From: Bradyrhizobium sp. LMTR 3
GTDB taxonomy: Bacteria > Pseudomonadota > Alphaproteobacteria > Rhizobiales > Xanthobacteraceae
Direction of reading: 5' to 3'
Assembly: GCF_001693485.1 (NCBI RefSeq)
Contig: NZ_MAXC01000010.1
Span: forward strand, 80,152 to 144,151
Length of the DNA: 64,000 bases
The translations under genes were made by a program, and so were the position numbers. Shown here piece after piece: positions 1-9,118 of the stretch (the stretch's first letter is position 1; each line of letters begins with the position of its first letter). The notes beneath the pieces were generated by a model. The model saw nothing but the letters and a program-made list of their open reading frames with translations, ran no database searches and had not been told where the DNA came from.

Positions 1-3000
1 CGGCGCCTGCGTGATCGCGACTTTGCAGCCATGCGATGTAGTCGCGATAGCTGCCCTGCACGGCTGGCAGTGCGCACCCGCTCACATGCCGAAACACCTC
101 CGCAACCAGCCGCGCCGAGCTCCAGCCGTCGACAAAGATGTGGTGATGGGTCCAGATCAGCCAGTGACGCTTGTCGTCGAGCCGGATCAACCGCACCCGC
201 TGCAACGGCGGCTGAGAGACGTCGAAGCCGCTCTCGCGCTCGCGCCGCGATGCTTCCGCCAGCGCGGCGTCCAATTCAGCCCGTCCGCCACGTTCCAGCG
301 CTGCGGTCCGGCTGCGCCAATCCTCTTCGACGAACGGCACCGTCACATGACGGTGTACGACCTGCTGAGCCGCGCCTGACACGTGCTGCCAGACAAAGCC
401 GGTCCGCACGGCGGCGTGCCGGTCACACACCGCTTGCCACGCGGCGCGAAGCTTGTCGGCATCGAAGCCGAACAGCTCGAGCCCGATCTGGTTGACATAG
501 GCATCGTTGTCGCCATCGCGGATCGCGTGGAACAGCATGCCCTGCTGCATCGGTGAAAGCGGATAAATGTCCTCGATGCTGCGGAGATCCAAAGTCGTCG
601 CCAACCGATCGAGATCGGCCTGATCGAGTCCGGACAACGGGAAGTCCGAAGGCGTGAGACCAGATGCGCCGCTGCAGCAATGCGCCACCAGCTCGCGCAG
701 GGCCGTTTCGTAAAGCTTCGCCAGCCGCTCGACCGTCTCCCGCCGATAGCGCTTGCGTCCATATCCGAACGACAGATGCAGACGTCCCTCACGCACCAGA
801 CCGGTGATGTTGAGCCACCCCCGCAAGGGAGCGGCGGCGCTGCGAGACGCCCCCGCGCTCTCGGACGCGAATCCGAACAGCGAGGAAGCTCCCACGCTGC
901 CGTCGAAGCGGCCGAGATAGTTGAAGACGACCTGCGGCTCCGCCAGTTGCGCCAGGGCCTTGCGCTGGTGGTCGGCGCCGAGATAGCGCAACACGCCGTA
1001 GCCAAGCCCGCGGTTCGGAATCGCGCGAAGCCTCTCCTTCACCGTCTTGATCAGGGAGGCGTGGTCGTCCGACCCGCCTTGCAGCCGCACCGGGAAGGCC
1101 GTCGTGAACCAGCCGACCGTCCGGGAAATGTCCGCGCCGGGGAATATGTCCTCGCGGCCGTGCCCCTCGAGCTCGACCGTTACATCGTCGCGCTGGCTCC
1201 AGCGCGATACGGCACGCGCCAGGCTCGCCAGCATCAGATCGTTGACCTGCGTCCGATAGGCGGAGGGCGCATCCTGCAGCAGGCTTGACGTCAGTTCGGT
1301 ATCGAACACCAGCGACACCTCTTCGCCGTCACCGACGCGGTCGACGCCGCCATGATCATCGTCGCATGGCAGGCCTGGACCCGCCGCACAATCGAGCCAG
1401 AACGGCAGTTCGTCAGCAAGCTCGCTGGTCGTCGCGTAAGAATGCAACCGTTCGCCCCAGGACGCATAGGACTCGCTCTTCGGCGGCAGCGTCGCGGCGG
1501 CGCCTCTCTTCAACTGCTCGTACGCCGCGGCCAGATCTTCAAGCAGGACCCGCCAGGATACGCCGTCGACAACCAGATGATGGATCGCGATCAGCAGCCG
1601 CTGGCTGCCGTCCGCAAGGTCCATCGCCACCGCACGCAGCAAACGACCCGCGGACAGCGACAAGCTTTCCTGCGCGGCCGATGCAAGCGCGGTGACCTGT
1701 GTCGCATCTCCGACATCGGTATGGATCCACAGCAACTCCGACGGCGATGGCGGCGTGCCCTGCGCCGCGCGCCACGCGCCGTCCACCTGCGCGAACCGCA
1801 GGCGCAACGCATCGTGATGATCGACGATCGTCGTCAGCGCACGTCGCAGGGTCTCCCAGTCCATCCGCGATTGCGGGACCAGCAACACGGCCTGATTCCA
1901 GTGATCCCGGTTGCCGATGTCTTCGCTGAAAAAGCGTGCCTGAATTGGCAGCAAATGACGCATGCCGGTTGCCGCATCGATCGATACCTTTGCGGCCGAA
2001 CTCTCCTTCCTTGCTAAAGGTGCTGCCGCGACGGCGGCAACGGTAGCCAACCCCGCCACGGTCTGCTGGCCGAAGACCTGCTTCGGCGTCAGGCGAATGC
2101 CGCGCTTGCGCAGGCGCGCGATGATCTGCAGGCTGAGAATGGAATCGCCGCCAAGCTCGAAAAAATTGTCGGTGCGGCCGATGCGTTCGCGACCGAGCAC
2201 CTCACGCCACACCGCCGCAATCTGTTCCTCCGTGTCTCCCAGCGGCGCGGAATAGTTCGCGGCGACCACGTCCCCAGCCGGCTCCGGCAGCGCCTTGCGG
2301 TCGATCTTGCCGTTTGGCGTGAGTGGCAGCCGTTGCAGAACAATGATGTGCGACGGCACCATGTATTCCGGCACCACCGCGGCCAGTTGCTGCTTGATCA
2401 CATCCGGCTTCGGTGTGGCGCCCATCGCGGGCACACAGTGCGCAACGATCTCCCAGCGTTCGGCGCTGTCGCCGATGGCGCGTGCGACAACCACCGCGTC
2501 GTCGATCCCCTGAAGCGCCTTGATCGCGCGCCCGACTTCGCCAAGCTCGATGCGATAGCCGCGTAGCTTGATCTGATCATCGCCACGGCCGAGGAATATC
2601 AGCCGGCCTGTCCGATCGCAGCGAACGCGATCGCCGGTTCGATACAGCCGCGCTCCGGCCGGCCCAAACGGGTCCGGAATGAAGCGCTCGGCGGTCAAGC
2701 CGGCCTCGCCACGATAGCCCCGCGCGACGCCGGCGCCGCCAATGTAGAGTTCGCCGGATACGCCGATCGGAACCTCGTTGAGCGCATCATCCAGAACGTG
2801 CACGCGCAGATTGGCAAGCGGCAGGCCAATGGGGACCGGGCCTATCTCGTCTGTAGCCTCACATTCGTACGTGACCGCGCCAACAGTCGTTTCCGTCGGC
2901 CCGTAGTGATTGAGAATTCGGCATTGCGGCCGCAACTGCCGGATCTCGTTCAACAGCGCGGGATCGCTGGCCTCGCCACCGAGGATCAGCGTATCGCTGG

Positions 3001-8890: not shown

Positions 8891-9118
8891 TCAAGCCGAC
8901 TTCTGCGGCGCCGTCTCGTCCATGAATTTGCGCAGCGTTAGGGGGCGCATGTCGGTCCACACTTGCTCGATGTGCTCGAGGCATTCCTTCTTGCTGCCCG
9001 TCTTGCCAACTGCTTTCCAGCCGTTCGGAATTTCCTTGAACGTCGGCCAGATGGAGTATTGCTCTTCGTGATTGATAACGACGGTAAAGGTGACGTCGTC
9101 TCTGTCGAACACCATCAT
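8891..9118 (-). CDS. MbtH-family NRPS accessory protein
   Basis: The 75-residue protein carries all MbtH hallmarks in order: FDRDD at the N-terminus, NHEEQYSIWP, IPNGWKAVG, and CLEHIEQVWTDMRPLTLRKF at the C-terminal end. MbtH proteins bind NRPS adenylation domains and are often needed for their solubility and amino-acid activation, so the expected partner is the NRPS at 1-7120. It is the first gene of the biosynthetic run, with a 383-bp upstream gap that must hold the promoter. Translation could start at the first or the second of two adjacent Met codons. Confidence 0.96.
   Translation of the reverse strand: MMVFDRDDVTFTVVINHEEQYSIWPTFKEIPNGWKAVGKTGSKKECLEHIEQVWTDMRPLTLRKFMDETAPQKSA

What the first reader, a model, noticed from the sequence alone, without database searches (positions are those of the whole stretch)
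1..9118. Acyl-peptide siderophore cluster with predicted beta-hydroxyaspartate first residue
Seen directly: fatty acyl-AMP ligase, ACP, C, A, PCP, E, C order in one frame, plus a TauD-type dioxygenase, MbtH and type II thioesterase on the same strand and a TonB receptor next door. Known: acyl siderophores such as cupriachelin and taiwachelin use a fatty acyl-AMP ligase starter and beta-hydroxyaspartate. Inferred: a similar but probably distinct amphiphilic siderophore, since the D-configured first residue and the rest of the line differ or are unseen. Lipopeptide siderophores are not widely described from this group of bacteria.
Basis: partly seen in the sequence, partly recalled or inferred. 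Interest (0 to 1): 0.75.

Follow-up and report, generated by a model that had tools for sequence, protein, structure and literature searches.

The report
Bradyrhizobium's likely lipopeptide siderophore assembly line
These genes encode an eight-module peptide assembly line that is predicted to start from a fatty acid and would likely make an iron-scavenging lipopeptide; key genes of it occur together in 29 of 195 sampled Bradyrhizobium genomes, so the elusive siderophore of these soil and root-nodule bacteria can now be looked for directly.

Summary
The window cuts the cluster at its left edge; I read the rest on the same contig. The line is FAAL-ACP-[C-A(Asp)-T-E]-[C-A(?)-T] / [C-A(aromatic)-T]-[C-A(Gly)-T] / [C-A(OH-Orn)-T-E]-[C-A(Ser-like)-T-E]-[C-A(Gly)-T]-[C-A(OH-Orn)-T]-TE: eight modules. 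Beside it lie an ornithine N-monooxygenase, a GNAT N-acyltransferase, Fhu-type uptake, a siderophore-interacting reductase, a peptide exporter and a phosphopantetheinyl transferase. One beta-OH-Asp plus two hydroxamates would give six iron donors. The TauD is a stand-alone type, 69% identical to that of Pandoraea species with the pandorabactin cluster. FAAL, monooxygenase and module 6 are found in the same 29 of 195 genus genomes, each with a TauD orthologue at 75-100% identity. So: a new member of a known kind (FAAL-primed acyl-peptide siderophores). New here: the residue order, the genus-wide all-or-none distribution, two natural chemotypes at residue 2, and the probable correction of a published 'malleobactin-like' label (PMC12815270). 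No compound has been seen; residues 2 and 6, the acyl groups and the release mode are unresolved.

The parts
2..7120 (-). NRPS1, N-terminal 2373 of 3249 aa (whole gene G000:C11:77522-87271): FAAL-ACP-C-A1(Asp)-T-E-C2 in the window, A2-T beyond it
5441..7120 (-). Fatty acyl-AMP ligase domain (residues 1-560), predicted loader of the acyl starter
   Evidence: solved relatives include FAALs FadD23 (329 bits), FadD32 (285) and FadD28 (257); the best three are chains named only 'Polyketide synthase' (421-423 bits); NCBIfam fatty acyl-AMP ligase models; 29 of 195 genus genomes
5171..5398 (-). Acyl carrier protein (FFVLGGNSI at residue 601)
   Evidence: borders approximate
3821..5125 (-). Condensation domain C1, predicted to take the acyl chain; lies with C3 and C5 and reference first C domains
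2306..3724 (-). Adenylation domain A1, code DLTKIGHVG(K): Asp
   Evidence: same first eight letters in P. syringae pyoverdine OH-Asp modules (PMC3207962 passages)
2042..2227 (-). Peptidyl carrier T1, predicted site of Asp beta-hydroxylation
668..1960 (-). Epimerization domain E1 with HHxxxDG, EGHGRE and FNYLG motifs: D-residue 1 predicted
2..574 (-). Condensation domain C2 (cut by the window edge); groups with C6 and C7, the other C domains that follow an E domain, and with C8
7176..8144 (-). Stand-alone TauD-type Fe(II)/2-oxoglutarate dioxygenase, predicted L-Asp beta-hydroxylase; H105, E107 and H300 (the likely metal ligands, recalled motif) invariant in 12 of 12 aligned
8113..8868 (-). Type II thioesterase (editing)
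8891..9118 (-). MbtH-like protein
9119..9501 (.). Intergenic region upstream of the mbtH-TEII-tauD-NRPS run; its last ~110 bases are conserved in most of 14 aligned loci, probable promoter; regulator not identified
9502..11979 (-). TonB-dependent siderophore receptor, probable uptake receptor of the product

Best explanation
The window holds the start of an eight-module, three-protein NRPS line, encoded next to ornithine-hydroxamate and siderophore-transport genes, that would likely build a fatty-acylated octapeptide siderophore chelating Fe(III) through one beta-hydroxyaspartate and two hydroxamates. Predicted steps: the FAAL loads a fatty acid as acyl-AMP onto the ACP (inferred from domain type); C1 joins it to Asp on module 1; the stand-alone TauD hydroxylates carrier-bound L-Asp to L-erythro-beta-OH-Asp (inferred from relatives with known products); E1 inverts the alpha-carbon, giving D-threo-beta-OH-Asp (inferred). 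The chain then grows as X2 - aromatic (Phe/Trp-like) - Gly - D-(N5-acyl-N5-OH-Orn) - D-Ser-like - Gly - N5-OH-Orn (residues 1, 4, 5, 7 and 8 from clear codes; 3 fair; 2 and 6 open). The monooxygenase and the GNAT acyltransferase would make N5-acyl-N5-hydroxyornithine before loading (the acyl transfer was shown in vitro for PanQ of Pandoraea). The C-terminal TE would release the peptide, either linear, with a cyclised OH-Orn end, or as a macrolactone (undecided). Export would be by the cyclic-peptide ABC exporter; the ferric complex would return by the TonB receptor, the Fhu-type transporter and the SIP reductase.
For: Shown in sequence: module order and codes (Lys517 in 8 of 8 domains); accessory genes. 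Same eight-module order in the 12 Bradyrhizobium clusters read through (all eight codes read in 10; A3 missed by my motif in G124 and cut by a broken frame in G110; NRPS2 lies in two frames in G087). All-or-none package at the cut-offs used: FAAL, OMO and module 6 in the same 29 of 195 genomes, each with a TauD at 75-100% identity. TauD is 69% identical to the Pandoraea orthologue and groups with 16 chosen stand-alone ones, away from the fused TauD domains of six loci (40-43%, branch 1.14). Pandoraea, whose pandorabactin contains L-erythro-3-OH-Asp and N-delta-OH-Orn (PMC12144892, section 5 parts 1-2 read), has the codes DGEGSGGMT (8 of 8 loci) and DLTKxGHVG (7 of 8, one cut) in its first two modules, a labelled control for both chelating residues. 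C2, C6 and C7, each after an E domain, group with the Pandoraea module-2 C domain, a module the paper calls DCL (support 0.73). One full-score Lys/Orn monooxygenase in the genome, no IucA/IucC, no formyltransferase on this contig.
Against: No compound, transcript or iron response was measured. A2 (DIEFIGAIA) and A6 (DVWHFGRIN) fit no code found in print. C8 groups with the DCL-like domains although module 7 is predicted Gly, and C4 (HHLIGDHST) joins the same side by a long branch although module 3 has no E domain, so the stereochemistry of residue 3 is not safe. One N-acyltransferase for two OH-Orn modules. Five of six Bradyrhizobium strains tested in PMC12815270 made no detectable siderophore. 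FhuB, FhuD and SIP are missing from the fetched cluster stretch in 3 of 12 clusters.
Confidence: 0.87

Rival explanations
1. It is a malleobactin/ornibactin-type cluster, as antiSMASH-based work labels NRPS siderophore genes of Bradyrhizobium (mbaABCH).
For: Shares OMO, beta-hydroxylase, E and TE domains with that family; PMC12815270 (section 15 read) reports mbaABCH in 41 of 278 Bradyrhizobium genomes, close to my 29 of 195.
Against: Eight modules with a FAAL-ACP starter; no formyltransferase on the contig (5 hits, none on C11), which that paper itself notes as absent from all its Bradyrhizobium genomes; first residue Asp, not OH-Orn. That malleobactin lacks a FAAL and has four residues is recalled.
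Confidence: 0.05
2. It is a lipopeptide surfactant or antibiotic with only incidental metal binding.
For: FAAL-primed NRPS lines also make such compounds (recalled); an aromatic residue and Gly spacers are predicted.
Against: OMO, OH-Orn modules, Asp beta-hydroxylase, siderophore TonB receptor, Fhu-type transporter and SIP reductase sit in the cluster, and OMO, FAAL and the TauD orthologue share one distribution.
Confidence: 0.04
3. The line is degenerate and makes nothing in this strain.
For: Five of six tested Bradyrhizobium strains gave no siderophore signal (PMC12815270), though the paper does not say that they carry this line; NRPS2 is broken in two relatives (G087, G110).
Against: The three NRPS frames are open in this genome, the motifs scanned are intact, and module 6 is kept at 64-93% identity in the other 28 carriers.
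Confidence: 0.04

Closest known systems
Pandorabactin (pan cluster, Pandoraea; PMC12144892)
   Same: FAAL-primed NRPS, stand-alone Asp beta-hydroxylase (69% identity), ornithine N-hydroxylase plus an N-acyltransferase, MbtH, type II TE, E domains, OH-Orn code DGEGSGG[MV]T
   Different: Hexapeptide OH-Orn-OHAsp-Thr-OHOrn-Ala-OHAsp with two OH-Asp; here eight modules, one Asp (first), two OH-Orn, plus aromatic and two Gly modules
Cupriachelin / taiwachelin / potashchelin (PMC7100376)
   Same: FAAL-ACP start, beta-OH-Asp as first residue and hydroxyornithine at the end (potashchelin; the others recalled), MbtH, TEII, OMO, acyltransferase
   Different: Taiwachelin and potashchelin start FAAL-ACP-C-TauD with a fused hydroxylase; here the cluster's only hydroxylase is stand-alone and residue 1 is followed by an E domain. 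The fused type does occur in L079, L081, L083, L104, L112 and L116
Malleobactin / ornibactin (PMC12704434, PMC12815270 passages)
   Same: OH-Orn and beta-OH-Asp chemistry, stand-alone hydroxylase (partly recalled)
   Different: No formyltransferase here, FAAL starter present, eight modules
P. syringae pyoverdine (PMC3207962 passages)
   Same: Asp code DLTKIGHV and a separate hydroxylase gene for OH-Asp
   Different: Chromopeptide; no retained fatty acid (recalled)

Membership tests
FAAL-primed acyl-peptide (lipopeptide) siderophores | FAAL and ACP at the start of the NRPS line | tested here: met
FAAL-primed acyl-peptide (lipopeptide) siderophores | Asp module with a dedicated TauD-type beta-hydroxylase | tested here: met
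FAAL-primed acyl-peptide (lipopeptide) siderophores | Hydroxyornithine modules with ornithine N-monooxygenase and N-acyltransferase | tested here: met
FAAL-primed acyl-peptide (lipopeptide) siderophores | Ferric-siderophore uptake genes beside the line | tested here: met
   TonB receptor, FhuD and FhuB homologues, ABC ATPase, SIP
FAAL-primed acyl-peptide (lipopeptide) siderophores | Product is an amphiphilic Fe(III) chelator made under iron limitation | not testable with these tools
   needs culture and LC-MS
Taiwachelin/potashchelin loading type | FAAL-ACP-C-TauD fused starter protein | tested here: not met
   NRPS1 has no TauD domain
Malleobactin | Hydroxyornithine formyltransferase in the cluster | tested here: not met
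   five Formyl_trans_N hits, none on contig C11
Ornibactin | Two acyltransferases in the cluster (PMC12704434 passages) | tested here: inconclusive
   one GNAT found by Pfam; a 152-aa gene near it has no Pfam match
Stand-alone siderophore Asp beta-hydroxylases (giving L-erythro-OH-Asp) | Stand-alone gene that groups with stand-alone enzymes rather than fused domains | tested here: met
Stand-alone siderophore Asp beta-hydroxylases (giving L-erythro-OH-Asp) | Hydroxylates carrier-bound Asp with 3R outcome | not testable with these tools
   needs in vitro assay

The most novel reading that the evidence does not exclude
This line is the native siderophore pathway of Bradyrhizobium: the producers so far filed as 'malleobactin-like' (such as B. 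yuanmingense) actually make a D-threo-beta-hydroxyaspartyl acyl-octapeptide, which comes in two natural chemotypes because the substrate-binding core of module 2 was exchanged between an unknown residue and Gly.
Probability: 0.55. Interest if true: 0.68.

Novelty: new member of a known kind. Interest (0 to 1): 0.55.

Why it matters
A 2025 survey concluded that Bradyrhizobium has limited siderophore biosynthesis, labelled its NRPS siderophore genes malleobactin-like but incomplete, and found one producer among six strains tested (PMC12815270). The present reading offers instead a complete, self-consistent pathway whose key genes are carried all-or-none by 29 of 195 sampled genomes, with a predicted structure and testable masses. 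It also offers a natural experiment in changing NRPS specificity at one module, and a warning that near-identical Gly modules can scatter this cluster over contigs in draft genomes and so hide or shorten it.

Tried and rejected
Residue 2: A2 code DIEFIGAIA. Searching print for it and for DVWHFGRIN found nothing. It matches 7 of 10 positions of the Arg consensus given in PMC12283262 section 11 but lacks Asp278; the best-scoring solved relative is linear gramicidin synthetase LgrA (that this LgrA module takes Gly is recalled). I left it open. An iron ligand at residue 2 is unlikely because some sister clusters have Gly there.

Interface-domain reading of the middle Condensation match in NRPS1: rejected, since E motifs are intact and it is 66% identical to each of E5 and E6.

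Module deletion in B. yuanmingense: L178-L180 (G135) first showed a 3639-aa frame lacking modules 5-7, which would have been a shorter siderophore; module 6 lies on another contig of the same genome (C22, 3774-aa frame), so an assembly collapse at the near-identical Gly modules is the better reading, not proven.

Iron-regulator box: no Irr-box consensus could be read, so no claim is made.

A second NRPS on contig C52 was checked as a possible part of the pathway; no full-score Lys/Orn monooxygenase lies on that contig, and it is treated as unrelated.
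Full report
WHERE IT IS. The window is bases 80152-144151 of contig C11 in a 7.83 Mb genome. The cluster runs left beyond the window on the same contig to about C11:43000.

THE LINE. In order of synthesis (all on the minus strand; C11 coordinates): NRPS1 77522-87271 (3249 aa): FAAL-ACP-C-A1[DLTKIGHVG]-T-E-C-A2[DIEFIGAIA]-T. NRPS2 70941-77525 (2194 aa): C-A3[DAWTVAGVC]-T-C-A4[DILQLGLVW]-T. NRPS3 54506-70948 (5480 aa): C-A5[DGEGSGGVT]-T-E-C-A6[DVWHFGRIN]-T-E-C-A7[DILQLGLVW]-T-C-A8[DGEGSGGVT]-T-TE. 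The nine letters were read on a recalled GrsA ruler; the tenth, Lys517, is present in 8 of 8 domains (my first motif had missed it in A5 and A8). Asp (A1), Gly (A4, A7) and N-delta-modified Orn (A5, A8) are clear: PMC3207962 passages give the first eight letters DLTKIGHV for pyoverdine modules whose product has OH-Asp; PMC12283262 names DGEGSGGVTK among codes for modified Orn (section 11 read); the Gly code is close to DILQLGMIWK given there for Gly (passage). A3 resembles the Phe code of GrsA (recalled), and that paper notes that Phe and Trp codes overlap (section 15 read). A6 shares DVWH with Ser codes there but not the rest. A2 is open.

ACCESSORY GENES. In the window: TauD, type II TE, MbtH, TonB siderophore receptor. 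To the left of the line: an alpha/beta hydrolase (53493-54509), a FhuD homologue (52466-53401), a FhuB homologue (50473-52545), an ABC ATPase in the FhuC position (49514-50443, +), a siderophore-interacting reductase (48316-49548, +), a cyclic-peptide ABC exporter (46469-48256; TIGR01194 679 bits, cut-off 286), an Acetyltransf_8 GNAT (45178-46257), an ornithine N-monooxygenase (43859-45217; 385 bits), a phosphopantetheinyl transferase (43024-43854, +). The genome has one full-score Lys/Orn monooxygenase (11 hits, the other ten 20-40 bits), no IucA/IucC hit and no formyltransferase hit on C11. Other siderophore pathways were not searched for.

THE HYDROXYLASE. The 80 loci kept from genome contigs (more existed than the 80 kept) include Nitrobacter (2 loci, 86-87%), Methylobacterium, Inquilinus, Pandoraea (69%), Pseudomonas and Cupriavidus. 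In a FastTree of ours, 16 chosen stand-alone forms and the fused forms, ours sits with the stand-alone ones, and the fused TauD domains of six loci form a far group (40-43% identity, branch 1.14; one 609-aa frame, L116, was sorted as fused only by my length rule and falls with the stand-alone ones). Pandorabactin contains L-erythro-3-OH-Asp and N-delta-OH-Orn (PMC12144892, section 5 parts 1-2 read), and the paper calls the former likely the work of PanH; PMC7100376 (section 18 read) groups the stand-alone PtcA with enzymes giving 3R, and says that this 3R group also holds fused domains. In the eight Pandoraea loci (L085-L091, L093) the first A domain reads DGEGSGGMT in 8 of 8, and the second is an Asp code in the 7 where it is not cut. 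That is a labelled control for both ligand types. L-erythro followed by the intact E1 domain would give D-threo-OH-Asp; D-threo has been found in megapolibactin C (PMC6771848 passages).

CONDENSATION DOMAINS. In a FastTree of 11 own and 9 reference domains E1, E5, E6 group with one HHxxxDGVS domain of each reference (my script had labelled those three 'C'; I take them as E from the grouping). C1, C3, C5 lie with the first C domains of the references. C2, C6, C7 (each after an E domain) and C8 form one group (support 0.997), which joins the Pandoraea module-2 C domain (0.73), a module the paper calls DCL. Against simple expectation, C8 is in that group although it follows a Gly module, and C4 (HHLIGDHST, of one type in the 12 clusters) joins the same side by a long branch although module 3 has no E domain. 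These two are not explained.

DISTRIBUTION. In 195 genus genomes: TauD at E<=1e-30 in 31, of which 29 at 75-100% identity and two (G071, G193) only at 46-48%; FAAL at E<=1e-150 in 29; OMO at E<=1e-100 in 29; module 6 at E<=1e-150 in 29, best match 64-100% identical (its code was read only in the clusters). The 29 handles are the same in each; the other 166 have none at these cut-offs, bar the two distant TauD matches. In the order, 12 of 397 genomes and 6 of 141 genera have a TauD at E<=1e-60. Of the 80 named loci, 48 have a FAAL in the held DNA. Twelve Bradyrhizobium clusters were read through (of the 14 stretches given, G456 is another architecture and G364 ends with its contig). In these 12, FAAL, TauD, hydrolase, exporter, GNAT and OMO are present in 12 (the exporter match in G087 covers half); FhuD, FhuB and SIP in 9, missing from the fetched stretch in G145, G160, G166.

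TWO CHEMOTYPES. Module 2 reads DIEFIGAIA in 9 of the 12 and Gly in 3 (G145, G160, G166); among named loci, 16 of the 17 with a readable module 2 behind a FAAL-Asp module have DIEFIGAIA, the exception being B. aeschynomenes L078. Against the same module of G145, the flanks of our A2 are 75-88% identical over the best windows (60-120 and 340-440) while the ~140-residue core with the binding pocket is 16-30%. The same dip appears against A4, A5, A6 and A7, so shared flanks with differing cores are a general feature of this line; the case for an exchanged core rests on its appearing between orthologous modules. In a FAAL tree L075, with DIEFIGAIA, falls outside the Gly clade, which weakly favours DIEFIGAIA as the older state. 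The Gly domains A4 and A7 are 91% identical in this genome. In core comparisons over seven genomes, A4 and A7 of one genome are closer to each other than to those of any other genome in five (92-100%); not in our own (90%, against 93-94% to G019) nor in G166 (84%, against up to 86%). So the Gly modules seem to be homogenised within most genomes, not all.

LITERATURE. PMC12815270 (section 15 and passages read) reports mbaAB homologues in 85 and mbaABCH in 41 of 278 Bradyrhizobium genomes, all lacking the formyltransferase, and detects siderophore only from B. yuanmingense CCBAU 25021, an mbaABCH strain, among six strains tested; that strain also has a putative dimethylcoprogen cluster according to the paper, which is a rival source of its siderophore. 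41/278 (14.7%) is close to my 29/195 (14.9%), though the samples differ. The B. yuanmingense genome held here, CCBAU 10071 (L068 = G135), carries the FAAL line, OMO and GNAT, with module 6 on a second contig. I infer that mbaABCH is this line; CCBAU 25021 itself was not examined. PMC11696751 (passages) reports a CAS-positive Bradyrhizobium isolate, while the compound it purified came from Cupriavidus; PMC8561711 (passages) mentions malleobactin clusters of low similarity in Methylobacterium. The searches listed no paper whose title or abstract start describes a FAAL-primed siderophore from Bradyrhizobium; I saw listings only (20 of 63), save for passages or sections of PMC12815270, PMC11696751, PMC10516422, PMC8561711, PMC12704434, PMC7100376 and PMC12904278. 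The library holds open-licence PMC papers only.

VERDICT. The finding is real, its chemistry is well predicted, and the kind is known. What is new is the specific line, its genus-wide all-or-none distribution, the two chemotypes and the likely correction of a published label.

Noticed in passing
window 9502-11979; L060-L074, L078: The TonB receptor beside the cluster is far more variable than the synthetic genes and comes in two types: L063 shares 97-98% TauD identity with L064 and L066 but only 63-64% TonB identity. This suggests receptor replacement at a conserved siderophore locus.
   Followed up: partly
G000:C11:71163-72749 and 58748-60337; G145, G143, G019: The two Gly adenylation domains (A4, A7) are 91% identical in this genome and 96-100% in G145, G143 and G019: probable gene conversion, and a likely cause of split or collapsed assemblies. 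Not seen in G166 (80-84%).
   Followed up: partly
L178-L180 (G135:C58) and G135:C22: In the B. yuanmingense CCBAU 10071 draft the line appears as five modules on one contig, with module 6 on another; probably an assembly collapse.
   Followed up: partly
L141 (G087) and L143-L144 (G110): NRPS2 is split into two overlapping frames in two genomes of one contig each; real decay or sequencing error, not decided.
   Followed up: no
G000:C52:4297-7404 and 24940-31407 (L176, L019): A second, small NRPS: a 1035-aa formyltransferase-like/C/A protein and, about 17 kb away, a 2155-aa protein with two AMP-binding, two Condensation and two carrier matches next to a MatE exporter. Product unknown.
   Followed up: partly
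window 9119-9501: The ~110 bases before mbtH (TTGGAGCTATTAAAAAC...CGATATTGCTTTGACC...GACCTAGTCAA) are conserved in most of 14 aligned loci, L078 the most divergent: a candidate iron-responsive promoter or sigma-factor site.
   Followed up: no
L071, L072: Nitrobacter (nitrite oxidisers) carry the same FAAL/Asp/DIEFIGAIA start at 80-81% FAAL identity.
   Followed up: no
G456, L079, L081, L083, L104, L112, L116: Other loci (Inquilinus, Hansschlegelia, Methylobacterium and one record named Mycobacterium sp. KBS0706) have a second architecture with both a stand-alone TauD and a TauD inside the FAAL frame.
   Followed up: partly
window 12156-13304: An M20-family peptidase gene follows the TonB receptor; a relative is found in 10 of the 16 named loci that have the receptor hit, 80 loci searched; role unknown.
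   Followed up: no
L081: A contig titled Mycobacterium sp. KBS0706 carries a TauD/FAAL start like that of Inquilinus limosus (75% and 50% to ours); the record's name looks doubtful.
   Followed up: no
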